Origin: Tillus elongatus
Taxonomy: Eukaryota; Arthropoda; Insecta; Coleoptera; Cleridae
NCBI GenBank assembly: GCA_964006375.1
Contig: OZ023263.1
Location: forward strand, 139,274,673 to 139,338,672
DNA: 64,000 bases
Direction of reading: 5' to 3'
The notes beneath the pieces are model-generated. The model made no database searches. It saw only the letters and a program-made list of their open reading frames with translations, and was not told where the DNA came from. Each line of letters starts with the position of its first letter. The stretch's first letter is position 1. A program made the translations under genes and the position numbers. Positions 4,655 to 60,258 of the stretch are shown here, piece after piece.

Positions 4655-5251
4655 ATGGAGGGATTAATATCAGAATTGGTGAAGGCCATAAAATCTTCAC
4701 GTACCGCACCTGAACAAATTGATTTGCCTTTCTTTCGCCCAGATTTGACAGATGCAAAGAAGTGGTTATCCGAAGTCACGAGTATTAAAAATGAATTCGA
4801 GTGGTCCGACCAACAGGTTTTAACCCGAATAGGTCGTTTTTTGTCGGGAATATCTAAAACTTGGTTTGATACGTGGACACCAGAAGTAAAAACATGGCAA
4901 ATATTTCAACGAGATTTTTCGGAAGCCTTTCCCCCAAAGAAAAACCTTGGCCGTTTGCTTTCGGAAGCTGCTAACTTTAACAGCAATTCATGCAATACGT
5001 ATGATGCTTACGTATTCGAAAAAGCGAGCCTACTTCGAAATCTTCGCGTTCAATGGGAAGAAGCAGATCTCGTAGAATTAGTGGTTCATGGAATCAAGGA
5101 GCGAGATATTTGCACAATAGCTGGTAATCAAAATTTCAAAAAATTATCTGAGCTCATTTCATTCCTGGGAACTGTTCCTAAGCGAAATGCTGACCAACAT
5201 GTCGAGAGAAAACCTACCGAATTAGGGGAGCCTCCTCGCAAACGTTTTTGA
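4655..5251 (+). CDS. Gag of the 3449-10474 element
   Basis: The ATG at 4655 was chosen because it opens a Gag-like protein (MEGLISELVKAIKSSR); the upstream in-frame extension has no ATG. The 198-residue product has the helical capsid pattern of Ty3/gypsy Gag (WLSEVTSIKNEF, RIGRFLSGISKTWFDTW, VHGIKERD). It assembles the particle that packages element RNA. The frame ends at a TGA (5249-5251), and the same frame then continues directly into the zinc knuckles and protease. So Gag and Pro-Pol form one frame broken by a single stop. This could be programmed readthrough or a point mutation. Confidence 0.85.
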   Translation: MEGLISELVKAIKSSRTAPEQIDLPFFRPDLTDAKKWLSEVTSIKNEFEWSDQQVLTRIGRFLSGISKTWFDTWTPEVKTWQIFQRDFSEAFPPKKNLGRLLSEAANFNSNSCNTYDAYVFEKASLLRNLRVQWEEADLVELVVHGIKERDICTIAGNQNFKKLSELISFLGTVPKRNADQHVERKPTELGEPPRKRF

Positions 5252-37735: not shown

Positions 37736-38325
37736 TATGGTTACTTAGCCTGGTCGTGCGCTGGTCGTTCTCTCATGTGATCGACGTGTGACTTGGCTAC
37801 TGGACTCCTAGAGGCTGGCTCCACGTGCCACCCCTGGCGCGACTGTCGGCAATGGGAATAACGCCCAGGGCTGATGGTTTACTAAAGTCTCACTCCTTCT
37901 TACACACGCCACATACGCATACAGACACAGACACGACACACATAGATCGGGTTGGGGGCTTCTCGGGCTTCGGCGTGGACTCCGAGCGGAGCTTGCTCTG
38001 GACTGGCAGCGCTGTGCAAACCAGGTCCAGCACACTTGGCGCCGTTTGGACAGTACAGGGACCCACCCTTGCCTTGGCTGGCGTAGGGGGCTGCTCTATC
38101 ATCCACTCGAAAAATGCTCGATCGTGCCAGTAGCACTGGGTAGCTCCGGAACAGGGGGTTAGCTGCACGCTTCGCGTCGCCACGGCGTGGCCGCAAAGCC
38201 GCTCTTAACGGAATTAAGTCTCATCATGGAGGAAGCGCCGGCGCGCGGTGGGGTGATCTCCCGTATCTATACGCTCACCAAACCATAAGCATACCATCAC
38301 ACATAAAACCGAATTTTTAGCAACC
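37736..38325 (+). other. 5' noncoding region of the R1-like LINE
   Basis: GC-rich sequence with a CACA-rich run near 37904-37945. Frames are open on both strands because of composition, but none has a protein signature. Confidence 0.5.
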
Positions 38326-39036
38326 ATGAATAGTCGGCAAGAAGAAGATGGTAAGGTGCCAAAGACCAGTGAGGAGGCAGAAGATAGATATATCCCTGTA
38401 TCTCCAAGTAGCTCCAGCAGGGAACTGGAGGAAACGTCTTTGGCTCTCCCGTCGTGGTGTCCAGGGTGGAACCATACGGTTCCGCCGGGGACACTGCTGC
38501 CACTGGGAGCGACGAGGGGCGAACTTCGCTGGCTACGAGTCCGGCCGGGTCCATGGACGTGTCCATGGGAGGGGTAGAATACGAGGAGTCGCGAAGGAAG
38601 TGTAGGAGGGAAAGAAAAAGGAAGTGGAGAGCCCAGAAAAGGAGGCGAGAGAGGGAGGAGCTGAAGCAGCGGTGTCGTCGGGGTGCTGTTGGCCCTTAGA
38701 GGCGCAGGCTGCTACGGCAGCGGTGGCGTCGCAGGACGTGCAGCAGCCGCAAATCCCCTCTGCCTCTGCGGCCGGTCGGGTTGCTTTCGAGCCGGGGAAC
38801 CCTCAGGGATCGTCAAGGCGAGAGGCAAGGTAGTGAAAGAGATTGTCCTGCCGACGGGACCGGGCGAGGGTCGCAGAGAAGGGGAGGGGCTGAAAGGCCC
38901 TACCCCTAGAGCGCCCTCCGGGCGTTCGACAGAGAAGCAGAAACAAAAGAGGGATAAGAGGCATCAGCCCACGGGGACGAAAGCTGGACAGGCGGCCACC
39001 GGCACAGGGAGGACCAGGCTGGCGGCTGTATTTTGA
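38326..39036 (+). pseudogene. ORF1 (Gag-like) remnant of the R1-like LINE
   Basis: An ATG at 38326 opens MNSRQEEDGKVPKTSEEAED, after which the signal shifts between frames. A strongly basic stretch follows (RRKCRRERKRKWRAQKRRRE near 38585-38650), then another basic region near 38930-39000. The position before the endonuclease and the basic nature fit LINE ORF1. No zinc knuckle is readable. At least two frame changes occur. Confidence 0.55.
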
Positions 39037-39069
39037 GTTAGTGACTCTGAGTGTAACCAGAGTTCCGAC

Positions 39070-39998
39070 ATGAAGTGCAGTCGCCTTCGCCCGGCCCGCG
39101 AAGAACGCGCGAACGGGCTCTGGCCAGAGGAGGTCCCCGCCCGGGCGGCGTCGCGATTAAATTCTCGGGGCTACTGCGGGTGGCCCATATCAACCTACAG
39201 CATAGCCGGGATGCCACTGTGGAGCTGGCAAAGCTCGTCGCAGGCGCCAAGGCGGCGTTGTGTTGATACAAGAGCCTTATGTGTATAGGAAGCAAGTGAT
39301 AGGGCTTGGAGGAATCGGCTTCAACATCATAGTTGGTGGCGAAGCAGAGGAAGAACAACCTAGGACATGCATACTGGCGTCGAGGGATCTGGACGTGATG
39401 TTGCTGCCGCAGCTCGGGTCCAGGGACGCCACAGCAGCTGTCCTGGAGTATAAGGTGAATAATATTGGGCTTAAGGTTATGATGTGCAGCCTTTTTGTTC
39501 CCAACGATCGGCAGGGGGCTGCCTCAGTCAGAGGAATTTGTGCGTTTTGTCGTTTTTGCGAGGGAACATGGGTTACAACTGATAATAGGCTGCGATGCCA
39601 ATTCTCACCACATATTGTGGGGCAGCACAAATACCAACCCACGCGGTGAGGCTCTACTGGAGTATTTGGCTACAACGAACCTAGAGGTATTAAATAGAGG
39701 TACAGCTCCAACGTTTGTCAATCGCATCCGGCAGGAGGTGATCGACATCACGTTAGCGAGCAGAGGACTAACGGAGAATATATCTAACTGGAGGGTGACG
39801 GAACACATATCAATGTCTGATCATCGTATGATCAGCTTTGAATTGGATGTGGACCGTGATAGGACTCCCACCAGGAGAAATCCAAGGAAGACCGACTGGG
39901 ATGCCTACGTAACAGGCCTTGGAGGGTCGCCAAGGAGCCCAGAGGGGAGAAGACTCCCTATAGAGGCGTTAGATAGAGGTCGAGGTCCTAGAAGGTAG
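39070..39998 (+). pseudogene. Endonuclease domain (EEP fold) of the R1-like ORF2
   Basis: Domain motifs appear across frames: start INLQHSRDATVELAKL, catalytic Glu in LIQEPYVYRKQVIGLGGIGF (about 39260-39320), then IIGCDANSHHILWGS (about 39590-39635), VIDITLASRGL (about 39740) and SDHRMISFEL (about 39818-39845). These are the hallmark residues of the LINE endonuclease that nicks target DNA. Frames change near 39260 and 39540, so the protein is broken. Confidence 0.8.
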
Positions 39999-40002
39999 AA
40001 TA

Positions 40003-40545
40003 ATGCCAGCCTACGAGGCCGCGTCCCCACTTAAAGGGGAACCGTCCATCAAAGTCAGATGGTGGAACAGGGATCTGGCCGTACTACGCGGGCGGACTCG
40101 GAGGGCCTTAAACCGAGCCGTCCGAGAATCGAGTGTAGTGGCCTGTGACGAATTTAGGACTGCCAGAAGGGAGTTTAAGAAGGAACTGCGAAGGAGTAAA
40201 CGAGCTAGTTGGAGCGCGTACTGCGGGGAAGTCAACTCCCTGCAGGACGCAGCCAGACTGGTAAGGGTACTCGAACAGGAGGTAGGCAGTAATGTAGGAT
40301 CCTTAAGGAAACCAGACGGGATCTGGACAAGCACCGGTGAGGAGACCCTGCATCATCTCGCCGAAGTTCACCTCGTGGGCGGTGGAGCCGTCAAGGGGGC
40401 TGCCGACTTGGGACGGTGGACGGTCCTGAATGCGGAACGGCAGCTGGCAGAGGGGGTAGTTACGGATGGCTCTATAGCCTCGGCGGTGGGCGAGTTCGCT
40501 GGACAAGGCGTACAGGCTAATCAGCCTTACATCATTCCTGCTTAA
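40003..40545 (+). pseudogene. Endonuclease-RT linker of the R1-like ORF2
   Basis: This 180-codon frame has VRWWNRDLAVLRGRTRRALN and SKRASWSAYCGEVNSL, the typical stretch between endonuclease and RT in R1-type elements. It ends at a stop next to the RT frame. Part of the RT N-terminus between them appears deleted. Confidence 0.7.
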
Positions 40546-40985
40546 GGCATTAGAAAAGATAGTAAATAGGTTTATGTTGGGAGGGATCCTAAAGGATCAC
40601 CCCTTCCATAAAGGTCAGCACGCGTACCAGCGGGGGACGGCGACGGAAACGGCGCTCCATGCTGTGACACGGAAGGTGGAAAGGGCCCTATACTACGGGG
40701 AGAGCACATTAGCTGTGTTCTTCGATGTGGAGGGGGCCTTTTATAAGGCAAGGACGGATATAGTCTGTACCGCCCTACTGGATAGGGGAACGCTGAGGTC
40801 CCTAATAAGTTGGGTGGCGAGCATGCTGGAGGACAAGAGAGTTTCGCTGACCTTGAGGGGCCGGGGGTTGGACGTTTGGGGTGACGGGCGGCTGTCCTCA
40901 GGACAGCTGCCTTTCGCCCCATCTATGGTGTCTGGTCATGGACGGCCTCTTGGAGCGACTCTCCGAGAATGTCTTCTACGCTCAA
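40546..40985 (+). pseudogene. Reverse transcriptase N-terminal part of the R1-like ORF2, truncated
   Basis: It starts at LEKIVNRFM and continues GQHAYQRGTATETALHAV, motif A VFFDVEGAFYKA and motif B RGCPQDSCLSPHLWCL (the latter in another phase near 40885). The sequence ends at about 40985 before the YADD motif, where P-element transposase sequence begins. Confidence 0.8.
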
Positions 40986-42365
40986 ATGAAAAATGCAAGG
41001 CTCAAATGCAAAATGTTAAATTGGCAGCACAATTGTTTTCAAACACAACTGCTACAGCATTGAAGCATTACATCCCAGGGAAAGACCAAAAGGCAAGTGT
41101 TGCAGCTGGCGATATTTTCCAGCTGGTGAATAATTGGTTCGATATTAAGAATTGTTATTCACCATCGACCTCAATTCCAAAAAAAAAAAAACCATATGGC
41201 ACCAATTTAGTCTTGCAGTATGAATTTTTAAATAAAATGGTTTCTGTAATTAGTGGAATGACCTGTATAGGCAAAAAGAGCTTGCAAATGTTTCAGCGTG
41301 GAATAATAATGTCGGCAAAAGCTTTACAAGGCTTGTATGAAGATATAAAGGAAGAGTATGCTATTCAGTATATTTTAACCCATAGGTTAAACCAAGACTG
41401 TTTAGAAAATTTTTTTTGTCAGGTGAGTGTGAAAACCTAATTTGCACTTAAATAGTATGTATTTTTTAGTTGTTAATTGATTGTTGTTGCTCTTACTTAA
41501 TAAAACCATTTAATGCTAGATGCAGACGTAGAGACTTTTTCTCTGATTTCATAAGTGTGAAGCCAAAAAAAGTTTACATGTGTATTTTATTTAGTTTATT
41601 CAATTTTCAGGCCAGAACTCGTGGAAGACTTCATGACCATCCATCACCATTGAATTCTATGTATAAAGTAAGAATGATTCTTTTAGAAAAAAATCCTGGC
41701 CTGGTGACTGCTCATTCAAATGTGGAAATTTCTCCAGGTGCAGAAAATGTAGAATACTTACTATCTATTGATGTGAAACAAGCAAAGCTTGGTAATATGA
41801 AACTTGCAGAGGAAAATTTTGAAGATCAGCTCGATGACAGGATGGACTTTGCAAGTACCACATCATCCAGCAGTATACACTCAAAGGATAGCCTAAGGAG
41901 AGAATCAGAAAAAGATGGCTTAGCATACATTGCTGGCTATTTAGCCAAAAAAAGATAAAAAACATCATCCAGATTTGGGAGAATATACATCTAAAACAAA
42001 TGAAGGCATAAACCTTCATAGTTATAGCCATTTTCCTTCATGTATTCAAAACTTAACTTTTGGTGGTTTGATCCAACCATCGGGTTAATGGTTAGATCAT
42101 GTCACCAAAATAAATACATATTTTCAAAAACTGCATAGTGACAGTTTTAATTTAGGAAAAACGTTGTTAACAAAACCTATGACTATATACTTGGCAGAGT
42201 TAACGAAGTCCCAAAAGAACTTGTATCTTCATTTTGTAGACAAAGGATGTTTGTAAGAATTAGGTTCCCTATTATAAACAGAGAAGAAAAGCAAGCAGAA
42301 AAAAGAAAGACTTCTGCTGATATTTACCGAAAAAAATTATTAAAAAATGAAAAAGCTGTAATTTA
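40985..42365 (+). pseudogene. P-element/THAP9-like transposase, C-terminal half with intact intron
   Basis: Exon A (about 40985-41422) encodes a segment typical of P-type transposases: VKLAAQLFSNTTATALKHY, LQYEFLNKMVSVISGMTCIG, LEEN-type region RLNQDCLENFFCQ. A GTGAGT donor at 41423 and a TTTTCAG acceptor ending at 41610 join in phase to exon B (ARTRGRLHDHPSPLNSMYKVRM). Exon B continues to LAYIAGYLAKK, after which stops appear. Further matching blocks run to about 42365 (FCRQRMFVRIRF). The N-terminal THAP and GTP-binding parts are absent, replaced by the R1-like LINE. A domesticated THAP9 gene is less likely because of the stops. Confidence 0.8.
41423..41610 (+). other. Spliceosomal intron in the P-like transposase
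   Basis: This 188-nt intron has donor CAG/GTGAGT and acceptor AATTTTCAG/GCC after a pyrimidine-rich stretch. It falls between codons, and protein similarity continues across it. It contains stops in every frame. Confidence 0.75.
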
Positions 42366-47358: not shown

Positions 47359-47362
47359 CGCC

Positions 47363-47842
47363 AGTTATTATGTTACATGTCACCTCCCATTAAGAGTTCA
47401 CCTTATTAAACAGTTTCTCTATTATTTTCAAATGATTGTCTAGACTGTTTCCTCTAAATTTAAAAACAATAGTTAGGTTACCTAGGATACAGTCACCTTT
47501 ACTGTTTATTTGTCTATTGTATTATTATATAGGACCTACTCACCTTTTAATTATATTCATATGAGTATTTTCTAGACAATTCCCATAATGTTAAACATTA
47601 GATACATGACTTGTAAAACGTAGGCTAAAGTTATAAAAGCACACTGTTCACTAGAATAGTTATTCATTTAGTTCTTCGACTTCTACAGTGCAAGTACTCT
47701 GTGACCGCGGTCACAGCATATTATATTTGTATCACTAACGTTAGTTGTTGAGTTCTAAGTGTTTCAATTGTAACTACAAATTGTATTCTCTTTGCAAATA
47801 AAGTTCATAGCTATTAGAGTTTACAACTTTGAAGTTATTACT
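47363..47842 (+). repeat. 5' LTR of provirus A
   Basis: A 480-bp repeat. It contains a TATA-like TATAAAAG at about 47632-47639, an 18-bp perfect palindrome CTGTGACCGCGGTCACAG at 47699-47716, and a polyadenylation signal AATAAA at 47797-47802. Transcription start is therefore likely between about 47660 and 47700. Confidence 0.93.
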
Positions 47843-47853
47843 GGCGCAGTCGA
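47842..47853 (+). promoter_or_regulatory. Primer-binding site of provirus A, tRNA-Ser type
   Basis: TGGCGCAGTCGA begins at the last base of the LTR. It matches the tRNA-Ser primer site class used by the 17.6/297 group of errantiviruses, as recalled from the family. Confidence 0.8.
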
Positions 47854-48236
47854 TTCAGATATCAAAAGAAAACAAAGTTCCCGGGAGCGCAGTTAATGCT
47901 TTTGTTATCTAAAACGAACCTCAACTTTGGAGTTGCCACACAACAGCCAACTGGTCCAGAGTATAAGTCCAACGGCCATCTGTTCCAGCTCGCAGTGAAG
48001 ACTCCCTCAACCAGCCACGACAGTCAACTGGTCCAGATTATAAGTCCAACGGCCATCTGTTCCAGATCGCAGTGAATACTCCTGCAACCAACTTCTCGCT
48101 GCTTGGTCTGGATTGTAAGCCCAAGTGCCGTCCGTTCCAGCCAGCGAAGGAAAAGGAAACCGTAAGTTTTTAGTCACGAATTCCTTTTTCGAAATCCCAT
48201 ATATATGTGTATATATAACTTTTTAATTATCATTTT
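47854..48236 (+). other. Leader of provirus A with tandem duplication and splice donor
   Basis: Two related units of about 70 bp (words ccaactggtccag, taagtccaacggccatctgt, tcgcagtgaa) lie between about 47946 and 48090. A consensus donor ACC/GTAAGT lies at 48162, before the Gag ATG, suited to making a spliced env RNA. Confidence 0.65.
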
Positions 48237-50657
48237 ATGATTGAATCTAACATTGAAGAAGAATTAGTCAAAGGCTTTAATAATTTAAAATTAAATATAC
48301 CAGCTTCCAAATTAAATAGGAATATTAAAAGTAAAATGTCGACTCCTAGCACTGAACAATTAATCGCTTCTGCAAGAAATTATGTAGAAGTGTTACCAAA
48401 ATTTGACGGAGATTGTGATACCTTAGAATGTTTTATTTCCGCTATTGATAAATTTTATGCTAGATATGGTGTAACCGCAGATAATACTTTAAACTCATAT
48501 GCATTTTATGCCATTAAAAGTAGACTGATAGGAGATGCAAATCACTTTGCTACCTGCAGATCTGACATAGATACTTGGCCAACTTTAAAAGTAGCTCTAA
48601 AAAATAAATTTGGTGATCATGTTGATAGGTACACCTTAATGTATCAATTTAAATTTTTAAGAATTAAAGAAAATGAAAGTTTATTAGATTTTATTGGTAG
48701 AATTAGAAATTTACTAAATAAGTTAGATATAAAAACTGTTAATGACAATACTATTCCCAGTAACCAAAGAGATTTATTAAAAGAAATAAACAAACAGACA
48801 GCCCTAGAAGTGCTTTATAATAATTGTCCACACACTTTGCAAACTATTTTAGAAATTAAAGAGCCCGAAAATCTAGAAGTTACTACCAATACCGTCCTAA
48901 AATATCTAACAAAACATCCCTCTAGAGAAAAAACTTTAAAGACACCCCATTTACCAGCCCCCCATAGGAAAATTGTCCAAAACACACAATTCGATAATAC
49001 ACCCATTCGTCAATATCACCCACAAATCTTTCTAAAAACAGCATTTCCTTCAGGACCAAGATATAATTTAAATCCTAGGTTAGCTCATAGTAGTTTTTCA
49101 GGGTTAGACTCTCGTAAGGAATTTCATCCTAGAGAAAATGTCTTCCACCCTAAACACCCAGTAGCGTTGCGTAATGCTTCTACGAATAACCCCACTCCGA
49201 TGAGTATATCTACTAGTATCAATAATAGTCAGTCTAAATATGTTCCGAGACACGTAAATAATAGCAATTTTTACAAACCAAATTTCACGAACGGAGAAAT
49301 GTTTACCACTGAAACTACGGAAAATATTTCTACGTGTTATTACGAGGACGAGTCTACTCAAGATTTAAATTACGAGTTCGAACCTTCCCAACAACCTCTT
49401 GAGGAAGAATGCAATAACGGCGAAATTTGTATGCAATCAGGCATCGGACAATCAAAACTCCCCTATATCCAATTAGATCATCCTAATATAAAACTGTTAT
49501 TGGACACTGGTGCCACAAGTTCGCTTATCCATCCCGAAATAGCCTATAAATATACCAAAAACTACATCTATAATAGTCCCTGTTTCTTGCGAAATATGTT
49601 CAATATCTCAGAACATAAATTTGCAACCAAAATTGTTTTATTAGGTACTGAACTTGACTTTCATCTTATAAACTCTCACCCAAATTTCGACGGTCTATTA
49701 GGCTCGAATGAATTAAAACTTCTTAATGCTCAAATCGATTATGTCAACGATCTTATATATCTGAAAGGCCAACCCTGTGAAATATTTTGGTACATTCCGA
49801 AAAGTCCATCTATTTCACAATCTGAAATTCAGCAAGTTTTACCGAGCTTAAAATTTCATACCACCAATAAAGAGGACAAAGCAAGTACCAATACAGAATT
49901 TCTGTATCGTATTGAAGCCTTTCCTTCCGACGCTAATACCGAAAAAACCGAAGATCTCTTAAGTTTGCTTAATAATCCTGGTGACATCGCAGAAAGAGAA
50001 CACCTCGATCTAGAGGACATCGATACCATATTAAGCGACTTACATAATAAAGAACCGGCCCCTAATAACAAAATTAACATTATATCTGACATCCAAGTTA
50101 GACCCATACAGCCAGCTGCATCCCAATGCTTAAAAAATGACGCGTTTCCCAATCCAGCCGTTCTTGCAGGAAATCTACCTCCAGCAAGTCTTCTACCTCT
50201 AGTCACAAATGAACATCCCTTTTCTGGCTCTGCCGACACTGATGACGTCACAAAACATACTCAATCAGAAAATATATCCGCCACACTTCCCATTACCGAT
50301 GAGCCACTTAATTATTTCAAGACGCAAATTATATTTAAATTGAAGGACGAACCACGTCTGTCCCATAATATGTATTTTAATAAAAATATTTATACAATAT
50401 TTATCACTCGTGGCAATCTAATAAATGAAATAATTAATGCTCTTAAACAAGTAGCTGAGCCTTCACACAGAAACGCTATATACACAGACGACTTACACCT
50501 ATACGAAACCCTAGCCTTAATAATTAATTCAAATTTTACAAATGCTATTAATTTTGTGTTTTGCAAGAAACAATTAATAGATGTCGTAGAGACAGAAAAA
50601 CAAAAAGAAATAATTCAAAATTACACAACCAAAAACATTGCGAAGCTAAATAATTAG
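48237..50657 (+). CDS. Gag-protease fusion of provirus A, with RT/RNase H removed in frame
   Basis: The frame is open for 806 codons from the ATG at 48237. The first 300 residues are capsid-like (VLPKFDGDCDTLECFISAID, YQFKFLRIKENESLLDF), with no zinc knuckle, as usual in errantiviruses. The protease active site LLLDTGATSSLI lies near residues 420-432. After the protease end (about residue 535) there should be about 600 residues of RT and RNase H. Instead the frame goes into a 140-residue acidic, low-motif stretch and then a conserved segment that normally lies between RNase H and integrase (residues about 685-806). A stop at 50655 separates it from the integrase frame. The product would be a Gag-protease that cannot reverse transcribe. 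Confidence 0.88.
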   Translation: MIESNIEEELVKGFNNLKLNIPASKLNRNIKSKMSTPSTEQLIASARNYVEVLPKFDGDCDTLECFISAIDKFYARYGVTADNTLNSYAFYAIKSRLIGDANHFATCRSDIDTWPTLKVALKNKFGDHVDRYTLMYQFKFLRIKENESLLDFIGRIRNLLNKLDIKTVNDNTIPSNQRDLLKEINKQTALEVLYNNCPHTLQTILEIKEPENLEVTTNTVLKYLTKHPSREKTLKTPHLPAPHRKIVQNTQFDNTPIRQYHPQIFLKTAFPSGPRYNLNPRLAHSSFSGLDSRKEFHPRENVFHPKHPVALRNASTNNPTPMSISTSINNSQSKYVPRHVNNSNFYKPNFTNGEMFTTETTENISTCYYEDESTQDLNYEFEPSQQPLEEECNNGEICMQSGIGQSKLPYIQLDHPNIKLLLDTGATSSLIHPEIAYKYTKNYIYNSPCFLRNMFNISEHKFATKIVLLGTELDFHLINSHPNFDGLLGSNELKLLNAQIDYVNDLIYLKGQPCEIFWYIPKSPSISQSEIQQVLPSLKFHTTNKEDKASTNTEFLYRIEAFPSDANTEKTEDLLSLLNNPGDIAEREHLDLEDIDTILSDLHNKEPAPNNKINIISDIQVRPIQPAASQCLKNDAFPNPAVLAGNLPPASLLPLVTNEHPFSGSADTDDVTKHTQSENISATLPITDEPLNYFKTQIIFKLKDEPRLSHNMYFNKNIYTIFITRGNLINEIINALKQVAEPSHRNAIYTDDLHLYETLALIINSNFTNAINFVFCKKQLIDVVETEKQKEIIQNYTTKNIAKLNN

Positions 50658-51713
50658 AAATTGAAATCAGGCGTTCTTATTACTGGCTCTCTATTGCAAA
50701 AGATTGTCAGCTTCACGTAGACTTGTGTGATATTTGCCAAGAATGTAAATACGAAAGGCACCCCATCCAATTTAACTTACAGGCTACCCCTATACCGTCA
50801 CGACCATTCGAAACATTGCACATGGATACCTTTTTAATTAATAATTTAAAAAAAATACCTTACACTGATAGACAGCTTTAGTAAATTTCTCGTCGTTAAA
50901 GAAATAAACACTTTAAATTTTCCGGACGTTATACCAAAGGTTCTAGAAATCTTTATGACGTATAAACCGCCACTAGTGCTAATTAGTGACAATGCAACCA
51001 AATTTTCAAATCAACAATTTAAAGGACTAATAGATTTGTATAATATCGACCACCACTTTATAACAAGCAAACATCCTAATAGTAATGGCATTATTGAAAG
51101 GATTCATAGCACAATCATAGAAATAATCCGCATAATTAAATCGAGCGATACTAATTTCCAAAAACTAGATTTGATGAGTAGCGCTGTAATTATTTACAAT
51201 AACACAATTCATTCTAGTACAAAACATAAACCATTAGAAATTTTATTCGGTCATTTAGAAAATCGTGAAATTTTACCATCTCCAGCGAATGAGAAAATTT
51301 ACACAGATTACATAAACAAAATTAGATCTGACACTAAAGCTCTTTACGAAGTAATTAAATTGCAGAATGAAAAAATTCACACATCGATTCTAAACAGAGA
51401 AAATGCCAAAAGAGAACCTTTTCCCGATCTGAAAGAGGAAAGTAAAGTATATCTTAAACAAAACCCGAGAAATAAAATTGCTTGTCGTTATAAAACAGAA
51501 ACCGTAGCTCAAAATGAACCAATTAAGTTTACAACGATAAAAAATAGAAAATATCACAAACAAGAAATCAAACCCATACGAAAATCACAAAAGTCAAACT
51601 TTGTTTCAGATGATACACCCGGCGTTTCTTCTGGTCATCTACCTCCATCTCTCACAGACCCAGAGAGTGGAAATAAAATCTCTAACAGACAATCCGGGAA
51701 TCCTCCCCATTAA
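50658..51713 (+). pseudogene. Integrase of provirus A, frame broken twice
   Basis: The zinc-finger Cys pair (LCDICQECKYERHP, about 50725-50767) and first catalytic Asp (HMDTF, about 50820) are in one frame. The core from about 50845 is in another, with the break at an A-rich run near 50850. The second Asp lies in LVLISDNATKFS (about 50980-51010), the Glu in NSNGIIERIHSTI (about 51080-51115), and the tail runs to the stop at 51713. The gag-protease frame also ends in the wrong phase for integrase. Both breaks are shared with provirus B, so they predate the two insertions. Confidence 0.85.
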
Positions 51714-53232
51714 ACTAGGCACCGCGAAATTACAAACAGGACAACATACTTTTATCCATACCATACCCTTAGACAAAATCCAAACGGAAATAAATAATAT
51801 TGACAAACACGTAGATTCACTCAAAGCAGCAGCTAATATATACCCTGTATTTCAGCAAGCCGAAATACGTTTAACGTCATTACTGGCACAACAAACCAAA
51901 GAGAAATTTTTATTATTGCAACCATTTCAAAATCGTCTTAATAAAAGGGGCCTAATAAACGGAATAGGGCATGTTTTTAAATTTATCTCGGGGACCCTCG
52001 ACTCAGACGACGGAGAACGTTATGATAGGTCAATCGAGATATTACGCAGGAATGAGGAAAATATAGTTAAGCAGTATAATAATCAACTGTCTTTAAACCA
52101 CGAATTTATTAATAATCTAGAAATGTCTATTAAAAATATCTCTTATGATTTTAAATCTCTGCAGGAGGCAACATTGGTTCTCCAACATAAATACATAGAA
52201 GAACTTTTAAAGGTCACATTAAATGAATTTAGAACAAAAATTTTATTACTGGATCAAATCATTGAGAACATGCAGGTATCAGTAACATTTGCATCTCTAG
52301 GAATGTTACACCCTTCTTTATTAACTAATTCGGCAGCTCAATATTTATTTAAACAACTGCTTAAACACCATAGTCCTGCACAATTTTACAGTAGAGACTC
52401 TATACTTTTCTTACATACTATGGAAATCGAATACTACATTACTAGGAATCAACTTACTTTTCTATTACATATACCATTGTTAGATTCAGAAACCTATAAC
52501 CTATATCACCTCTACTCTATACCTACCCCCGCCTTTAACACTATTATACCCCCAAATACCTTTGTGACTATAAACGAAAAGAAGAGTACATACGTAAGAA
52601 GTCACTGCAAGAAAATCCAAAATAATTTCTATTGTAGTCTAAAAGATCAAATACCCAACTATCAGCGAGAAGACTGTATCCATAATCTTTTGCAAGTAAA
52701 ATCATCACCTACTTGCCAAAGTGTTCCAGTACGGATTGAAGAACCACTGGTAGAAGCCGTTACGGAAGCAACCTACATAGTCATCGCCCCAAAAGAAATA
52801 ATCATTCACACAAAATGCAAAAGCGAGGAAGTTAAAGCAATAAAAGGTGTATATTTGGTCAATCTTCCACTGAACTGCAAGTTTATTAGTCAAAACTTTA
52901 CCTATGAAAATTGGCAACAAGAAACTCATGAAGACATCGTCTCACTACCTCATTTTGAGACCAACGAAATTCCAGCAAATCCAATCCATCTCAACCTCAA
53001 GTCTGTGGGCCTCGACAAGCTTCATCAGTTGACTATTCAGTACGCGAGTGACAGTGATAAGTTTAGTTCTTATAATTTAGTTAGCAGCTTCTTCTTTACA
53101 CTATTAATTTTACTAATGATAAGCATTTTAATATACATTAAACGTAAGGAAATTCATATGTATATAAAAAGATACAAATCTGCACCAACAGAAGAAAATA
53201 ATTTTGCTAACGAAACATTTCAGTTAACTTAG
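51610..53232 (+). CDS. env: Envelope glycoprotein of provirus A, complete frame
   Basis: The ATG at 51610 was chosen because a splice acceptor TTGTTTCAG ends exactly at 51609; pairing with the donor at 48162 would give a subgenomic env RNA. The 540-residue product begins with a hydrophobic signal-like segment (residues about 4-15). It has a dibasic NKR before a fusion-peptide-like GLINGIGHVFKFISG (about residue 114 on), heptad-like helical stretches, several cysteines in the second half, and one membrane span (about residues 489-510). A basic cytoplasmic tail follows. This is the layout of errantivirus Env, related to baculovirus F-type fusion proteins. The strict furin pattern is not met. 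The frame overlaps integrase by about 100 bp. Confidence 0.88.
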   Translation: MIHPAFLLVIYLHLSQTQRVEIKSLTDNPGILPIKLGTAKLQTGQHTFIHTIPLDKIQTEINNIDKHVDSLKAAANIYPVFQQAEIRLTSLLAQQTKEKFLLLQPFQNRLNKRGLINGIGHVFKFISGTLDSDDGERYDRSIEILRRNEENIVKQYNNQLSLNHEFINNLEMSIKNISYDFKSLQEATLVLQHKYIEELLKVTLNEFRTKILLLDQIIENMQVSVTFASLGMLHPSLLTNSAAQYLFKQLLKHHSPAQFYSRDSILFLHTMEIEYYITRNQLTFLLHIPLLDSETYNLYHLYSIPTPAFNTIIPPNTFVTINEKKSTYVRSHCKKIQNNFYCSLKDQIPNYQREDCIHNLLQVKSSPTCQSVPVRIEEPLVEAVTEATYIVIAPKEIIIHTKCKSEEVKAIKGVYLVNLPLNCKFISQNFTYENWQQETHEDIVSLPHFETNEIPANPIHLNLKSVGLDKLHQLTIQYASDSDKFSSYNLVSSFFFTLLILLMISILIYIKRKEIHMYIKRYKSAPTEENNFANETFQLT

Positions 53233-53260
53233 AATTCAAAGTACTCCGTAATTTTCATTC

Positions 53261-53274
53261 TTAAGGAAGGGAGG
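53261..53274 (+). promoter_or_regulatory. Polypurine tract of provirus A
   Basis: TTAAGGAAGGGAGG ends directly at the 3' LTR start (53275). It would prime plus-strand DNA synthesis. Confidence 0.8.
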
Positions 53275-53754
53275 AGTTATTATGTTACATGTCACCTCCC
53301 ATTAAGAGTTCACCTTATTAAACAGTTTCTCTATTATTTTCAAATGATTGTCTAGACTGTTTCCTCTAAATTTAAAAACAATAGTTAGGTTACCTAGGAT
53401 ACAGTCACCTTTACTGTTTATTTGTCTATTGTATTATTATATAGGACCTACTCACCTTTTAATTATATTCATATGAGTATTTTCTAGACAATTCCCATAA
53501 TGTTAAACATTAGATACATGACTTGTAAAACGTAGGCTAAAGTTATAAAAGCACACTGTTCACTAGAATAGTTATTCATTTAGTTCTTCGACTTCTACAG
53601 TGCAAGTACTCTGTGACCGCGGTCACAGCATATTATATTTGTATCACTAACGTTAGTTGTTGAGTTCTAAGTGTTTCAATTGTAACTACAAATTGTATTC
53701 TCTTTGCAAATAAAGTTCATAGCTATTAGAGTTTACAACTTTGAAGTTATTACT
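53275..53754 (+). repeat. 3' LTR of provirus A
   Basis: 480 bp, identical by eye to 47363-47842. The 18-bp palindrome recurs at 53611-53628. It is followed by the CGCC duplication. Confidence 0.93.
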
Positions 53755-53758
53755 CGCC

Positions 53759-53859
53759 TAAAATCCAGATCTATTCATTTCAAACGGCTCATAATTATAA
53801 AATGAACTGTGATGACAACTTAACCGACTCATGGTAAGATTAATTGGTTCACTGGGTGC
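53759..53859. other. Unique spacer between the two proviruses
   Basis: About 101 bp of non-repetitive DNA lies between the CGCC duplication of A and the CCAG duplication of B. It shows that the two elements do not share an LTR. Confidence 0.9.
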
Positions 53860-53863
53860 CCAG

Positions 53864-54343
53864 AGTTATTATGTTACATGTCACCTCCCATTAAGAGTTC
53901 ACCTTATTATACAGTTTCTCTATTATTTTCAAATGATTGTCTGGACTGTTTCCTCTAAATTTAAAAACAATAGTTAGGTTACGTAGGATATAGTCACCTT
54001 TACTGTTTATTTGTCTATTGTATTATTATATAGGACCTACTCACCTTTTAATTATATTCATATGAGTATTTTCTAGACAATTCCCATAATGTTAAACATT
54101 AAATACATGACTTGTAAAACGTAGGCTAAAGTTATAAAAGCACACTGTTCACTAGAATAGTTATTCATTTAGTTCTTCGACTTCTACAGTGCAAGTACTC
54201 TGTGACCGCGGTCACAGCATATTATATTTGTATCACTAACGTTAGTTGTTGAGTTCTAAGTGTTTCAATTGTAACTACAAATTGTATTCTCTTTGCAAAT
54301 AAAGTTCATAGCTATTAGAGTTTACAACTTTGAAGTTATTACT
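53864..54343 (+). repeat. 5' LTR of provirus B
   Basis: 480 bp with the same promoter-like features as A. The palindrome is at 54200-54217. The primer site TGGCGCAGTCGA starts at 54343. Confidence 0.93.
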
Positions 54344-54737
54344 GGCGCAGTCGATTCAGATATCAAAAGAAAACTAAGTTCCCGGGAGCGCAGTTAATGC
54401 TTTTGTTATCTAAAACGAACCTCAACTTTGGAGTTGCCACGCAACAGCCAACTGGTCCAGAGTATAAGTCCAACGGCCATCTGTTCCAGCTCGCAGTGCA
54501 GACTCCCTCAACCAGCTACGACAGTCAACTGGTCCAGATTATAAGTCCAACGGCCATCTGTTCCAGATCGCAGTGAATACTCCTGCAACCAACTTCTCGC
54601 TGCTTGGTCTGGATTGTAAGCCCAAGTGCCGTCCGTTCCAGCCAGCGAAGGAAAAGGAAACCGTAAGTTTTTAGTCACGAATTCCTTTTTCGAAATCCCA
54701 TATATATGTGTATATATAACTTTTTAATTATCATTTT
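54344..54737 (+). other. Leader of provirus B
   Basis: Same arrangement as in A: primer site, tandem duplication, and splice donor GTAAGT at 54663-54668 before the Gag ATG at 54738. Confidence 0.7.
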
Positions 54738-57157
54738 ATGATTGAATCTAACATTGAAGAAGAATTAGTCAAAGGCTTTAATAATTTAAAATTAAATATA
54801 CCAGCTTCCAAATTAAATAGGAATATTAAAAGTAAAATGTCGACTCCTAGCACTGAACAATTAATCGCTTCTGCAAGAAATTATGTAGAAGTGTTACCAA
54901 AATTTAACGGAGATTGTGATACCTTAGAATGTTTTATTTCCGCTATTGATAAATTTTATGCTAGATATGGTGTAACCGCAGATAATACTTTAAACTCATA
55001 TGCATTTTATGCCATTAAAAGTAGGCTGATATGAGATGCAAATCACTTTGCTACCTGCAGATCTGACATAGATACTTGGCCAACTTTAAAAGTAGCTCTA
55101 AAAATAAATTTGGTGATCATGTTGATAGGTACACCTTAATGTATCAATTTAAATTTTTAAGAATTAAAGAAAATGAAAGTTTATTAGATTTTATTGGTAG
55201 AATTAGAAATTTACTAAATAAGTTAGATATAAAAACTGTTAATGACAATACTATTCCCAGTAACCAAAAAGATTTATTAAAAGAAATAAACAAACAGACA
55301 GCCCTAGAAGTGCTTTATAATAATTGTCCACACACTTTGCAAACTATTTTAGAAATTAAAGAGCCCGAAAATCTAGAAGTTGCTACCAATACCGTCCTAA
55401 AATATCTAACAAAACATCCCTCTAGAGAAAAAACTTTAAAGATACCCCATTTACCAGCCCCCCATAGGAAAATTGTCCAAAACACTCAATTCAATAATAC
55501 ACCCATTCGTCAATATCACCCACAAATCTATCCAAAAACAGCATTTCCTTCAGGACCAAGATATAATTTAAATCCTAGGTTAGCTCATAGTAGTTTTTCA
55601 GGGTTAGAGTCTCGTAAGGAATTTCATCCTAGAGAAAATGTCTTCCACCCTAAACACCCAGTAGCGTTGCGTAATGCTTCTACGAATAACCCCACTCCGA
55701 TGAGTATATCTACTAGTATCAATAATAGTCAGTCTAAATATGTTCCGAGACACGTAAATAATAGCAATTTTTACAAACCAAATTTCACGAACGGAGAAAT
55801 GTTTACCACTGAAACTACGGAAAATATTTCTACGTGTTATTACGAGGACGAGTCTACTCAAGATTTAAATTACGAGTTCGAACCTTCCCAACAACCTCTT
55901 GAGGAAGAATGCAATAACGGCGAAATTTGTATGCAATCAGGCATCGGACAATCAAAACTCCCCTATATCCAATTAGATCATCCTAATATAAAACTGTTAT
56001 TGGACACTGGTGCCACAAGTTCGCTTATCCATCCCGAAATAGCCTATAAATATACCAAAAACTACATCTATAATAGTCCCTGTTTCTTGCGAAATATGTT
56101 CAATATCTCAGAACATAAATTTGCAACCAAAATTGTTTTATTAGGTACTGAACTTGACTTTCATCTTATAAACTCTCACCCAAATTTCGACGGTCTATTA
56201 GGCTCGAATGAATTAAAACTTCTTAATGCTCAAATCGATTATGTCAACGATCTTATATATCTGAAAGGCCAACCCTATGAAATATTTTGGTACATTCCGA
56301 AAAGTCCATCTATTTCACAATCTGAAATTCAGCAAGTTTTACCGAGCTTAAAATTTCATACCACCAATAAAGAGGACAAAGCAAGTACCAATACAGAATT
56401 TCTGTCTCGTATTGAAGCCTTTCCTTCCGACGCTAATACCGAAAAAACCGAAGATCTCTTAAGTTTGCTTAATAATCCTGGTGACATCGCAGAAAGAGAA
56501 CACCTCGATCTAGAGGACATCGATACCATATTAAGCGACTTACATAATAAAGAACCGGCCCCTAATAACAAAATTAACATTATATCTGACATCCAAGTTA
56601 GACCCATACAGCCAGCTGCATCCCAATGCTTAAAAAATGACGCGTTTCCCAATCCAGCCGTTCTTGCAGGAAATCTACCTCCAGCAAGTCTTCTACCTCT
56701 AGTCACAAATGAACATCCCTTTTCTGGCTCTGCCGACACTGATGACGTCACAAAACATAGTCAATCAGAAAATATATCCGCCACACTTCCCATTACCGAT
56801 GAGCCACTTAATTATTTCAAGACGCAAATTATATTTAAATTGAAGGACGAACCACGTCTGTCCCATAATATGTATTTTAATAAAAATATTTATACAATAT
56901 TTATCACTCGTGGCAATCTAATAAATGAAATAATTAATGCTCTTAAACAAGTAGCTGAGCCTTCACACAGAAACGCTATATACACAGACGACTTACACCT
57001 ATACGAAACCCTAGCCTTAATAATTAATTCAAATTTTACAAATGCTATTAATTTTGTGTTTTGCAAGAAACAATTAATAGATGTCGTAGAGACAGAAAAA
57101 CAAAAAGAAATAATTCAAAATTACACAACCAAAAACATTGCGAAGCTAAATAATTAG
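54738..57157 (+). pseudogene. Gag-protease of provirus B, with nonsense and frameshift
   Basis: It is collinear with A. A G-to-T change makes a TGA at 55032-55034, and one A is missing in an A-run near 55100, so Gag stops after 98 residues. The rest (55076-57157) is open in the original phase. It includes protease LLLDTGATSSLI and the same in-frame absence of RT and RNase H. At the residue corresponding to Tyr in A's FLYRIEAF it has Ser, giving FLSRIEAF, which resembles an RNase H C-terminal end. Confidence 0.88.
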
Positions 57158-58213
57158 AAATTGAAATCAGGCGTTCTTATTACTGGCTCTCTATTGCAAA
57201 AGATTGTCAGCTTCACGTAGACTTGTGTGATATTTGCCAAGAATGTAAATACGAAAGGCACCCCATCCAATTTAACTTACAGGCTACCCCTATACCGTCA
57301 CGACCATTCGAAACATTGCACATGGATACCTTTTCAATTAATAATAAAAAAAAAATACCTTACACTGATAGACAGCTTTAGTAAATTTCTCGTCGTTAAA
57401 GAAATAAACACTTTAAATTTTCCGGACGTTATACCAAAGGTTCTAGAAATCTTTATGACGTATAAACCGCCACTAGTGCTAATTAGTGACAATGCAACCA
57501 AATTTTCAGATCAACAATTTAAAGGACTAATAGATTTGTATAATATCGACCACCACTTTATAACAAGCAAACATCCTAATAGTAATGGCATTATTGAAAG
57601 GGCTCATAGCACAATCATAGAAATAATCCGCATAATTAAATCGAGCGATACTAATTTCCAAAAACTAGATTTGATGAGTAGCGCTGTAATTATTTACAAT
57701 AACACAATTCATTCTAGTACAAAACATAAACCATTAGAAATTTTATTCGGCCATTTAGAAAATCGTGAAATTTTACCATCTCCAGCGAATGAGAAAATTT
57801 ACACAGATTACATAAACAAAATTAGATCTGACACTAAAGCTCTTTACGAAGTAATTAAATTGCAGAATGAAAAAATTCACACATCGATTCTAAACAGAGA
57901 AAATGCCAAAAGAGAACCTTTTCCCGATCTGAAAGAGGAAAGTAAAGTATATCTTAAACAAAACCCGAGAAATAAAATTGCTTGTCGTTATAAAACAGAA
58001 ACCGTAGCTCAAAATGAACCAATTAAGTTTACAACGATAAAAAATAGAAAATATCACAAACAAGAAATCAAACCCATACGAAAATCACAAAAGTCAAACT
58101 TTGTTTCAGATGATACACCCGGCGTTTCTTCTGGTCATCTACCTCCATCTCTCACAGACCCAGAGAGTGGAAATAAAATCTCTAACAGACAATCCGGGAA
58201 TCCTCCCCATTAA
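57158..58213 (+). pseudogene. Integrase of provirus B, same frame breaks as A
   Basis: The zinc-finger and first-Asp segment are out of phase with the core, as in A, with the break at an A-run near 57350. The second Asp (SDNATKFSDQQF) and Glu (NGIIERAHST) are retained. The tail is open to 58213. Confidence 0.85.
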
Positions 58214-59732
58214 ACTAGGCACCGCGAAATTACAAACAGGACAACATACTTTTATCCATACCATACCCTTAGACAAAATCCAAACGGAAATAAATAATAT
58301 TGACAAACACGTAGATTCACTCAAAGCAGCAGCTAATATATACCCTGTATTTCAGCAAGCCGAAATACGTTTAACGTCATTACTGGCACAACAAACCAAA
58401 GAGAAATTTTTATTATTGCAACCATTTCAAAATCGTCTTAATAAAAGGGGCCTAATAAACGGAATAGGGCATGTTTTTAAATTTATCTCGGGGACCCTCG
58501 ACTCAGACGACGGAGAACGTTATGATAGGTCAATCGAGATATTACGCAGGAATGAGGAAAATATAGTTAAGCAGTATAATAATCAACTCTCTTTAAACCA
58601 CGAATTTATTAATAATCTAGAAATGTCTATTAAAAATATCTCTTATGATTTTAAATCTCTGCAGGAGGCAACATTGGTTCTCCAACATAAATACATAGAA
58701 GAACTTTTAAAGGTCACATTAAATGAATTTAGAACAAAAATTTTATTACCGGATCAAATCATTGAGAACATGCAGGTATCAGTAACATTTGCATCTCTAG
58801 GAATGTTACACCCTTCTTTATTAACTAATTCGGCAGCTCAATATTTATTTAAACAACTGCTTAAACACCATAGTCCTGCACAATTTTACAGTAGAGACTC
58901 TATACTTTTCTTACATACTATGGAAATCGAATACTACATAACTAGGAATCAACTTACTTTTCTATTACATATACCATTGTTAGATTCAGAAACCTATAAC
59001 CTATATCACCTCTACTCTATACCTACCCCCGCCTTTAACACTATTATACCCCCAAATACCTTTGTGACTATAAACGAAAAGAAGAGTACATACGTAAGAA
59101 GTCACTGCAAGAAAATCCAAAATAATTTCTATTGTAGTCTAAAAGATCAAATACCCAACTATCAGCGAGAAGACTGTATCCATAATCTTTTGCAAGTAAA
59201 ATCATCACCTACTTGCCAAAGTGTTCCAGTACGGATTGAAGAACCACTGGTAGAAGCCGTTACGGAAGCAACCTACATAGTCATCGCCCCAAAAGAAATA
59301 ATCATTCACACAAAATGCAAAAGCGAGGAAGTTAAAGCAATAAAAGGTGTATATTTGGTCAATCTTCCACTGAACTGCAAGTTTATTAGTCAAAACTTTA
59401 CCTATGAAAATTGGCAACAAGAAACTCATGAAGACATCGTCTCACTACCTCATTTTGAGACCAACGAAATTCCAGCAAATCCAATCCATCTCAACCTCAA
59501 GTCTGTGGGCCTCGACAAGCTTCATCAGTTGACTATTCAGTACGCGAGTGACAGTGATAAGTTTAGTTCTTATAATTTAGTTAGCAGCTTCTTCTTTACA
59601 CTATTAATTTTACTAATGATAAGCATTTTAATATACATGAAACGTAAGGAAATTCATATGTATATAAAAAGATACAAATCTGCACCAACAGAAGAAAATA
59701 ATTTTGCTAACGAAACATTTCAGTTAACTTAG
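58110..59732 (+). CDS. env: Envelope glycoprotein of provirus B, complete frame
   Basis: 540 residues from the ATG at 58110, directly after the acceptor TTGTTTCAG (ends 58109). It is nearly identical to A's Env. The substitutions I could see are LLPDQ for LLLDQ in the helical region and Met for Ile at the inner edge of the membrane span. The frame is fully open although gag of the same copy is broken, which may only reflect its recent age. Confidence 0.88.
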   Translation: MIHPAFLLVIYLHLSQTQRVEIKSLTDNPGILPIKLGTAKLQTGQHTFIHTIPLDKIQTEINNIDKHVDSLKAAANIYPVFQQAEIRLTSLLAQQTKEKFLLLQPFQNRLNKRGLINGIGHVFKFISGTLDSDDGERYDRSIEILRRNEENIVKQYNNQLSLNHEFINNLEMSIKNISYDFKSLQEATLVLQHKYIEELLKVTLNEFRTKILLPDQIIENMQVSVTFASLGMLHPSLLTNSAAQYLFKQLLKHHSPAQFYSRDSILFLHTMEIEYYITRNQLTFLLHIPLLDSETYNLYHLYSIPTPAFNTIIPPNTFVTINEKKSTYVRSHCKKIQNNFYCSLKDQIPNYQREDCIHNLLQVKSSPTCQSVPVRIEEPLVEAVTEATYIVIAPKEIIIHTKCKSEEVKAIKGVYLVNLPLNCKFISQNFTYENWQQETHEDIVSLPHFETNEIPANPIHLNLKSVGLDKLHQLTIQYASDSDKFSSYNLVSSFFFTLLILLMISILIYMKRKEIHMYIKRYKSAPTEENNFANETFQLT

Positions 59733-59760
59733 AATTCAAAGTACTCCGTAATTTTCATTC

Positions 59761-59774
59761 TTAAGGAAGGGAGG
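59761..59774 (+). promoter_or_regulatory. Polypurine tract of provirus B
   Basis: TTAAGGAAGGGAGG directly precedes the 3' LTR, as in A. Confidence 0.8.
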
Positions 59775-60254
59775 AGTTATTATGTTACATGTCACCTCCC
59801 ATTAAGAGTTCACCTTATTATACAGTTTCTCTATTATTTTCAAATGATTGTCTGGACTGTTTCCTCTAAATTTAAAAACAATAGTTAGGTTACGTAGGAT
59901 ATAGTCACCTTTACTGTTTATTTGTCTATTGTATTATTATATAGGACCTACTCACCTTTTAATTATATTCATATGAGTATTTTCTAGACAATTCCCATAA
60001 TGTTAAACATTAAATACATGACTTGTAAAACGTAGGCTAAAGTTATAAAAGCACACTGTTCACTAGAATAGTTATTCATTTAGTTCTTCGACTTCTACAG
60101 TGCAAGTACTCTGTGACCGCGGTCACAGCATATTATATTTGTATCACTAACGTTAGTTGTTGAGTTCTAAGTGTTTCAATTTTAACTACAAATTGTATTC
60201 TCTTTGCAAATAAAGTTCATAGCTATTAGAGTTTACAACTTTGAAGTTATTACT
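59775..60254 (+). repeat. 3' LTR of provirus B
   Basis: 480 bp carrying B-type diagnostic bases. The palindrome is at 60111-60128. It is followed by the CCAG duplication at 60255-60258. Confidence 0.93.
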
Positions 60255-60258
60255 CCAG

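What the first reader, a model, noticed from the sequence alone, without database searches (positions are those of the whole stretch)
47363..60254. Two independent proviruses of an RT-less but env-bearing errantivirus-like subfamily
Seen: both elements have complete LTRs, primer site, purine tract and private 4-bp target duplications (CGCC and CCAG). Both lack every RT and RNase H motif and share the same integrase frame breaks. The deletion is in frame, so gag-protease runs straight into the segment normally found before integrase. Inference: the deleted form was itself the template for both copies and was reverse transcribed and integrated by enzymes from another element. Non-autonomous LTR elements are known, but a family that drops only RT and RNase H while keeping gag, protease, integrase remnants and an open env is unusual.
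Basis: partly seen in the sequence, partly recalled or inferred. Interest (0 to 1): 0.92.

Follow-up and report, generated by a model that had tools for sequence, protein, structure and literature searches.

The report
Ancient RT-less satellite of insect retrovirus
Two neighbouring provirus copies belong to an old, recently active family of insect-type retroviruses that lost its copying enzyme but seems to persist by borrowing that enzyme from a sister virus with which it keeps swapping genes.

Summary
In detail: both elements have 480-bp LTRs, private TSDs, PBS and PPT, and lack RT and RNase H through one in-frame 1,575-nt deletion. Genome searches found 11 young copies with this junction (95-100% identical), 6 older RT-less ones (83-97%), and 5 RT-containing copies, one a fragment.

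New here: (1) the RT-less form is old. Synonymous divergence between young RT-less and RT+ copies is 0.34 in protease but 0.025 in gag and 0.012 in env. All 63 fixed differences lie within 49398-49968, around the deletion. Old RT-less copies group with young ones in protease; in gag and env RT+ copies group with young RT-less ones. (2) Reciprocal recombinants exist, best explained by co-packaging with the RT+ helper. (3) RT-less copies have gag and protease in one frame; RT+ copies have a -1 slippery site. (4) Four of 11 young RT-less copies carry an exact 18-nt tRNA-Ser primer-site copy, a footprint of tRNA-primed reverse transcription.

Verdict: a helper-dependent errantivirus-like satellite lineage. 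Its kind is known (IAP I-delta-1, Athila, RT-less pararetroviruses); this combination is a new variant.

The parts
47359..47362 (.). TSD CGCC of element 1 (other copy 53755-53758)
47363..47842 (+). element 1 5' LTR, 480 bp
47842..47852 (+). element 1 primer site, 11 nt exact to the complement of a host tRNA-Ser(AGA) 3' end; 18 nt in 4 other RT-less copies
47939..48090 (+). tandem 75-nt repeat in the leader
48237..49441 (+). gag part of the fused ORF (ORF 48219-50657, 812 aa); its border with protease is approximate
49398..49968 (+). stretch that holds all 63 fixed differences between young RT-less and RT+ copies (gag end, protease, deletion junction, first ~100 nt of linker)
49442..49866 (+). 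protease, in frame with gag; DTGA motif read from the translation; border approximate
49865..49882 (+). junction of the 1,575-nt in-frame RT+RNase H deletion (short imperfect direct repeat)
49883..50657 (+). linker that follows RNase H in RT+ copies; shared 1-nt frame break near its end
50654..51713 (+). integrase remnant in two frames (H2C2 75 aa; core 287 aa)
51610..53232 (+). env, open, Baculo_F family (first ATG of the 51541-53232 frame as read)
53263..53274 (+). polypurine tract
53275..53754 (+). element 1 3' LTR, identical to its 5' LTR
53860..53863 (.). TSD CCAG of element 2 (other copy 60255-60258)
53864..54343 (+). element 2 5' LTR
54720..57157 (+). element 2 gag-protease-linker, interrupted in gag (104 aa + 696 aa ORFs)
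56365..56382 (+). element 2 copy of the deletion junction
57154..58213 (+). element 2 integrase remnant
58110..59732 (+). element 2 env, open
59775..60254 (+). element 2 3' LTR, 1/480 from its 5' LTR

Best explanation
These are two members of an old, non-autonomous sub-lineage of an env-bearing Ty3/gypsy (errantivirus-like) endogenous retrovirus. Shown: one 1,575-nt in-frame deletion at short direct repeats removed RT and RNase H, and a 1-nt difference puts gag and protease in one frame; the RT-less copies that could be read there share both (junction 16 of 16, two with small further losses; frame 15 of 15). Shown: the young RT-less copies inserted separately with their own TSDs, and 4 of 11 bear an 18-nt copy of the tRNA-Ser primer. 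Inferred: RT-less RNA is packaged in the same particles as RNA of RT-containing sister copies, which supply RT/RNase H and, for most copies, integrase. Inferred from shown mosaics: template switching between the two packaged RNAs keeps LTR, leader, gag and env common to both forms, while the stretch around the deletion stays separate, so two haplotypes (RT- and RT+) persist in one recombining provirus population.
For: RT is absent at 17 loci counted by search (11 young, 6 older); of 16 read, 14 have exactly the same junction length, and L049 and L036 have small further losses. Young RT- versus RT+ dS is 0.336 in PR, 0.025 in gag, 0.012 in env. There are 63 fixed differences, 47 in PR and 16 in the linker, all within 49398-49968, and 0 in LTR, leader, gag, IN and env; nearest-neighbour clustering by RT status has p 0.0015 (PR) and 0.006 (linker), and 0.13-0.22 elsewhere. 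Four-gamete conflicts with RT status: PR 0 of 49 sites, against gag 8/15, leader 4/6, LTR 2/4, linker 23/59, IN 8/38, env 1/8. AU tests reject the grouping of the PR tree (young RT- with L036, L050, L051 apart from RT+, L038, L049; as far as these rows are in the segment) in gag (p 0.005), env (0.002) and LTR (0.003). Reciprocal mosaics L027 and L032. Own TSDs in 11 of 11 young RT-less copies, L031 counted with its extra LTR and L026 through an outer LTR and a duplicated flank. The 18-nt PBS equals the tRNA-Ser complement and ends there in L022, L023, L024, L026 and RT+ L032.
Against: The PR-tree grouping tested by AU has support 92/91, below the starred level, and the reverse AU test in PR does not reject young RT- plus RT+ against old copies (p 0.14). 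'RT+ copies one clade' is not rejected in gag (p 0.14) though it is in env (0.029). Only 3-4 RT+ copies were available per segment. Env has only 8 informative sites, of which 1 conflicts. No RNA, protein or particle data exist here; co-packaging is inferred. Protease in the RT-less clade shows few synonymous and relatively many amino-acid changes (young within: 0.4 versus 1.9; against L051 1.1 versus 10.5), so it may not be under selection.
Confidence: 0.85

Rival explanations
1. The RT-containing copies are the newcomers: an RT-less (or other-helper) backbone regained protease-RT-RNase H from a diverged relative by recombination, as reported for Athila Va-rec. (Not exclusive with dependence on a helper.)
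For: Six of the seven older copies located and typed are RT-less (one more partial match, C8:33.092M, was not typed); RT+ copies sit in the young clade in gag and env; PR of RT+ copies is 9-12% from all RT-less copies.
Against: An older RT+ fragment (L052, RT 95%) already has RT+-type protease (95.6% over 113 nt versus 88.5% over 104 nt to RT-less) and an LTR 96% like this family's.
Confidence: 0.25
2. RT-less copies arise again and again from RT+ copies by deletion at a repeat hotspot.
For: Short direct repeats flank the deletion.
Against: The RT-less copies read share one protease haplotype, 9-12% from RT+, and the same gag-protease frame difference.
Confidence: 0.03
3. Homogenisation comes from gene conversion among proviral DNA copies in the nucleus, not from co-packaged RNAs.
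For: Conversion among dispersed repeats is known in general (established knowledge).
Against: LTR pairs inside an element are identical (0/480 in 9 of 10 normal young RT-less pairs) while LTRs of different young elements differ by up to 1.2%, as expected of copying through one RNA.
Confidence: 0.08
4. The helper is a different family (the ones about 75% identical in RT), not the RT+ sister copies.
For: Several such copies exist in the genome.
Against: The mosaics seen are with RT+ sisters that share LTR, leader and PBS; recombination with the 75% family was not looked for.
Confidence: 0.06
5. Assembly collapse or segmental duplication.
For: One locus, L026, does look like an allelic or tandem duplication.
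Against: Young RT-less loci on six large contigs (C1, C2, C3, C4, C5, C7) with different flanks and own TSDs.
Confidence: 0.01

Closest known systems
Mouse IAP I-delta-1 proviruses (PMC6466679, passages seen)
   Same: Internal deletion in gag-pol, a fused ORF, non-autonomous, needs gag and pol in trans, and causes most new insertions.
   Different: The IAP deletion takes part of gag and pol (1.9 kb) and most IAPs lack env; here RT+RNase H is gone, gag-PR and env are kept, the clade is old, and gag and PR are in one frame where RT+ copies have a -1 slippery site.
Arabidopsis Athila non-autonomous families (PMC2410132, abstract and two sections read)
   Same: LTR elements with env; whole families without pol keep gag and env, multiply for up to about 2 My, and recombine with pol-bearing families; one lineage regained pol.
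   Different: Plant; RT and IN both absent; recombination reported between distant families rather than homogenisation around one deletion.
RT/RH-less endogenous pararetrovirus eRTBVL2 of rice (PMC5491270, abstract and two sections read)
   Same: RT/RH absent, protease and coat domains kept, partner virus shares regulatory sequence kept alike by region-specific recombination.
   Different: Plant pararetrovirus; RT/RH replaced by another domain, not simply deleted.
Drosophila insect endogenous retroviruses, e.g. rover variants (PMC12992720, passages seen)
   Same: gag-pol-env-F architecture; variants with and without one gene coexist.
   Different: There env is lost and pol kept; here RT is lost and env kept. 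The word 'non-autonomous' occurs 0 times in that main text.
TR-GAG / LARD elements of plants (search listing only; definition recalled)
   Same: LTR elements with partial coding, moved in trans.
   Different: TR-GAGs keep gag only.

Membership tests
Errantivirus / insect endogenous retrovirus | gag, pol (PR-RT-RH-IN) and F-type env between LTRs | tested here: met
   Met by RT+ sister copies and Baculo_F env; the window copies lack RT/RH
Errantivirus / insect endogenous retrovirus | tRNA-Ser primer site (used by part of the group; recalled) | tested here: met
   PBS matches a tRNA-Ser(AGA) gene of the same genome
Errantivirus / insect endogenous retrovirus | 4-bp target duplication | tested here: met
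   11 of 11 young RT-less copies (L031 and L026 with the caveats above), 3 of 3 RT+ copies with both ends seen
Errantivirus / insect endogenous retrovirus | RT falls in the errantivirus clade | not tested
   no named errantivirus RT set was fetched; membership rests on anatomy
Helper-dependent (non-autonomous) LTR element | lacks an essential enzyme in all members | tested here: met
   16 of 16 read copies with the junction have no room for RT/RH
Helper-dependent (non-autonomous) LTR element | deleted form itself transposes | tested here: met
   own TSDs, identical LTR pairs, same junction at many loci
Helper-dependent (non-autonomous) LTR element | a partner supplies the enzyme in trans | tested here: inconclusive
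   recombination with RT+ sisters implies co-packaging; trans supply not assayed
IAP I-delta-1-like element | gag-pol fusion by the deletion itself | tested here: not met
   the gag-PR fusion is a separate 1-nt difference about 0.4 kb upstream of the RT deletion
TR-GAG | gag the only coding region (recalled) | tested here: not met
   linker, IN remnants and open env present

The most novel reading that the evidence does not exclude
A long-lived two-haplotype retrovirus: one recombining population of proviral genomes has kept, since dS about 0.34 in protease, a short RT-less form with unregulated Gag-protease fusion and env and a long RT-bearing form with regulated frameshift. They behave like two segments with division of labour: the short form mainly makes structural protein and envelope, the long form the enzymes. 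It would be an animal counterpart of a multipartite or mutualistic satellite virus rather than a simple parasite.
Probability: 0.2. Interest if true: 0.82.

Novelty: new variant of a known kind. Interest (0 to 1): 0.64.

Why it matters
It gives an animal endogenous retrovirus in which a defective genome is an old lineage, not a dead end, and it leaves a readable record of co-packaging: divergence confined to the deletion and its flanks. It makes testable how long satellites coexist with helpers, whether they curb the helper (11 young RT-less copies found against 4 RT+ copies and one RT+ fragment), and whether losing the -1 frameshift helps a satellite.

Tried and rejected
Rejected: assembly collapse, repeated independent deletion, and segmental duplication (see rivals). 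The idea that the window copies lost the IN frame together with RT was rejected: the linker break is absent in older RT-less L038, L050 and L051. Purifying selection on RT-less protease could not be shown: pooled PR dN/dS RT- versus RT+ is 0.18, but within the RT-less clade counts are small and lean to amino-acid changes. Rfam on the window gave nothing and ARAGORN found no tRNA in the window. A 16-nt tRNA 3'-end pattern gave 155 sites (82+73), 2 in the reversed control; of 3 looked at, 1 is a tRNA-Ser(AGA) gene and 2 are copies of a repeat that looks like the primer site of another LTR element, so 155 is not a tRNA gene count. In one search I set the tRNA end one base too far out and got PBS matches of 4; one search corrects it. 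Genome searches with env, gag and protease did not complete, so family counts rest on the LTR, junction and RT searches; the tool calls its counts lower bounds. Host species not identified. Literature searches; none of the listed titles or abstract starts describes an RT-less env-bearing errantivirus, but only open-licence papers are held. The Troyka paper (PMC12440569, abstract and outline) proved beside the point.
Full report
CHECK OF THE OBSERVATION. The window lies at G000:C2:139274673-139338672 of a 1.72-Gb genome. LTRs are 480 bp, identical in element 1 and with one difference in element 2. Stop-to-stop frames are gag-protease-linker 812 aa (interrupted in gag in element 2: 104 + 696 aa), an integrase in two frames, and a 563-aa env frame. 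Pfam gives gag (weak), Integrase_H2C2, rve (weak) and Baculo_F env, and no RT or RNase H model, in the 8 frames scanned. Protease models are only marginal (E about 0.1, seen in element 2 alone); the DTGA motif is read from the translation.

HOW MANY COPIES. A search of the whole genome with the junction stretch (31 candidates, 31 scored) gave 11 copies at 95-100% over its full length, the window's two included. Six older copies also run from one side of the junction to the other without RT: three over the full length at 83-88% (L050, L038, L051), one over 4-911 at 87% (L049), one over 1-781 at 87% that was not fetched (C7:49.318M), and one with a second small deletion over the junction (L036, 94-97% in two pieces). 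A further partial match that does not reach the junction (C8:33.092M, 87%) was not typed. The RT stretch of copy L032 gave five matches at 95% or more, then a drop to 75% (40 of 1571 candidates scored). Four of the five were fetched with their surroundings (L025, L029, L032 with both LTRs; L034 read only to the integrase) and one is a fragment (L052). An RT+ copy with all three frames open exists in the assembly.

THE DELETION. Flank-to-flank distance at the junction is 110 nt in 14 of 16 RT-less copies read, 106 in L049 and 43 in L036; it is 1685 in three RT+ copies and 1683 in L034. The loss is thus 1575 nt, 525 codons. In RT+ copies short similar stretches (ATAAAAA(A)GGGCA) stand at both ends, and RT-less copies have one related stretch. 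That is the usual mark of a jump by reverse transcriptase or of a slip between repeats (inference).

THE SECOND CHANGE. In RT+ copies gag (418 aa in L029 and L032) and pol lie in two frames and overlap at T TTT TTA, a -1 slippery heptamer (naming it canonical is recalled). The 15 RT-less copies that can be read there (L051 lacks the region) have one more base at this place than the four RT+ copies, which puts gag and protease in one frame (older copies have other frame damage too). In young RT-less copies the T run itself is gone, while the old copies L038 and L049 still have a T run. This place is about 0.4 kb upstream of the RT deletion, so the deletion did not cause it.

TWO HAPLOTYPES IN ONE POPULATION. 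I cut 20 copies into seven segments and aligned each. A row was dropped from a segment if under half of it was found: L050 and L051 in LTR and leader, L051 in gag and env, L034 and L049 in IN and env. The solo LTRs L030, L035, L039, L040 and the far piece L037 were not used. Young RT-less (11) against RT+ (4, or 3 in IN and env) gave mean differences of 0.81% LTR, 0.96% leader, 1.04% gag, 9.91% protease, 5.71% linker, 2.58% integrase and 0.72% env; fixed differences were 0, 0, 0, 47, 16, 0 and 0, all within 49398-49968. Synonymous divergence is 0.336 in protease, 0.025 in gag and 0.012 in env, so selection on protein does not explain the island. RT status conflicts with none of 49 informative protease sites but with 8 of 15 in gag, 4 of 6 in the leader, 2 of 4 in the LTR, 23 of 59 in the linker, 8 of 38 in integrase and 1 of 8 in env. 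In protease, old and young RT-less copies stand together against RT+ (support 100/100); in gag and env, young RT-less and RT+ stand together against old RT-less (100/96 and 98/93). AU tests reject the grouping of the protease tree (young RT-less with L036, L050, L051, support 92/91 there) in gag (0.005), env (0.002) and LTR (0.003); the mirror test in protease is not significant (0.14). Holding RT+ as one clade is not rejected in gag (0.14) and is rejected in env (0.029).

RECOMBINANTS. L027 is RT-less with the RT-less protease but an integrase block within 0-1 differences per 150 nt of RT+ copies; its gag-PR-linker-IN frame is open over 1163 aa. L032 is RT+ with RT+ protease and RT, but a linker that is nearest to RT-less copies (0-2 differences against 2-11 to RT+ in three windows from 50167 to 50657), including their 1-nt break. 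Exchange has thus run both ways.

REVERSE TRANSCRIPTION FOOTPRINTS. Of 13 young RT-less and RT+ copies with a normal 5' LTR-PBS junction plus L034 and the inner fragment of L026 (15 in all), 9 have an 11-nt primer match, L031 has 13 and five have 18: L022, L023, L024, L026 (RT-less) and L032 (RT+). The 18 nt equal the complement of a host tRNA-Ser(AGA) 3' end and stop there. From general knowledge, plus-strand strong-stop DNA copies 18 nt of the primer up to methylated A58. L031 is flanked on one side by an extra LTR with exactly that 18-nt tail, joined head-to-head to the element; the whole unit has TSD CGCA. This is what an integrated strong-stop by-product would look like (inference). Counting that unit, and L026 through its outer LTR and duplicated flank, all 11 young RT-less copies have their own TSD.

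AGE. Young RT-less copies are very recent: one difference in 10 normal LTR pairs of 480 bp (L026 left out, because its inner 5' LTR is truncated). The deletion is much older: L038, which has the junction, has LTRs 9% apart, and L049 is at protease dS 0.18 from young copies. No calendar dates are given because the host's rate is unknown.

WHAT STILL WORKS. Gag-protease frames are open in 9 of 11 young RT-less copies (not W2, L026) and env in 8 of 11 (not L021, L023, L024). Gag dN/dS between young RT-less and four older copies is 0.22-0.31, env 0.28-0.55 against three; but both are shared with RT+ by recombination, so the constraint may come from the RT+ side. Integrase is broken in 10 of 11 young RT-less copies. 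So RT, RNase H and for most copies integrase must come from elsewhere.

NOVELTY. Non-autonomous proviruses that need helpers are known. IAP I-delta-1 has a gag-pol fusion and makes most new IAP insertion mutations (PMC6466679, passages). Athila has families with gag and env but no pol, and a recombinant that regained pol (PMC2410132, abstract and two sections). Rice has RT/RH-less pararetroviruses kept like their partner by recombination (PMC5491270, abstract and two sections). What I did not find in eight searches is an env-bearing insect-type retrovirus lineage that lost just RT and RNase H, has gag and protease fused, and stayed distinct from its helper only around the deletion. I rate it a new variant of a known kind.

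Noticed in passing
L031 352-848: An extra LTR with an 18-nt tRNA-derived tail joined head-to-head to a full element; one TSD (CGCA) flanks the whole unit, so both ends of the integrated DNA are U3 ends.
   Followed up: partly
L026 302-2040: LTR, then about 1 kb of flank (372 bases compared, 99.2% like the right flank), then a provirus with a truncated 5' LTR: allelic mis-join or tandem duplication.
   Followed up: partly
L021 1062-3988: A 2.9-kb non-LTR element (endonuclease + RT, 928-aa frame) sits inside env.
   Followed up: partly
L049: Older RT-less copy that also lost integrase: linker joined directly to env.
   Followed up: no
L052: Older RT+ fragment: protease end and RT, then an LTR 5 bases further on.
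   Followed up: partly
window 47939-48090 and 54440-54591: Tandem 75-nt repeat in the leader of both elements.
   Followed up: no
window 4556-8312: Another Ty3/gypsy element with gag, protease, RT, RNase H and integrase frames.
   Followed up: no
window 26-1501: ORF with a reverse transcriptase (RVT_1) hit, probably a non-LTR element.
   Followed up: no
window 38000-42000: GC-rich block (0.57 and 0.45 in two 2-kb windows) with an ORF (40574-41440) hitting TNP-like_GBD.
   Followed up: no
window from 46003 on: Array of short tandem repeats (copy spacing mostly 8-12 bp); its end was not determined.
   Followed up: no
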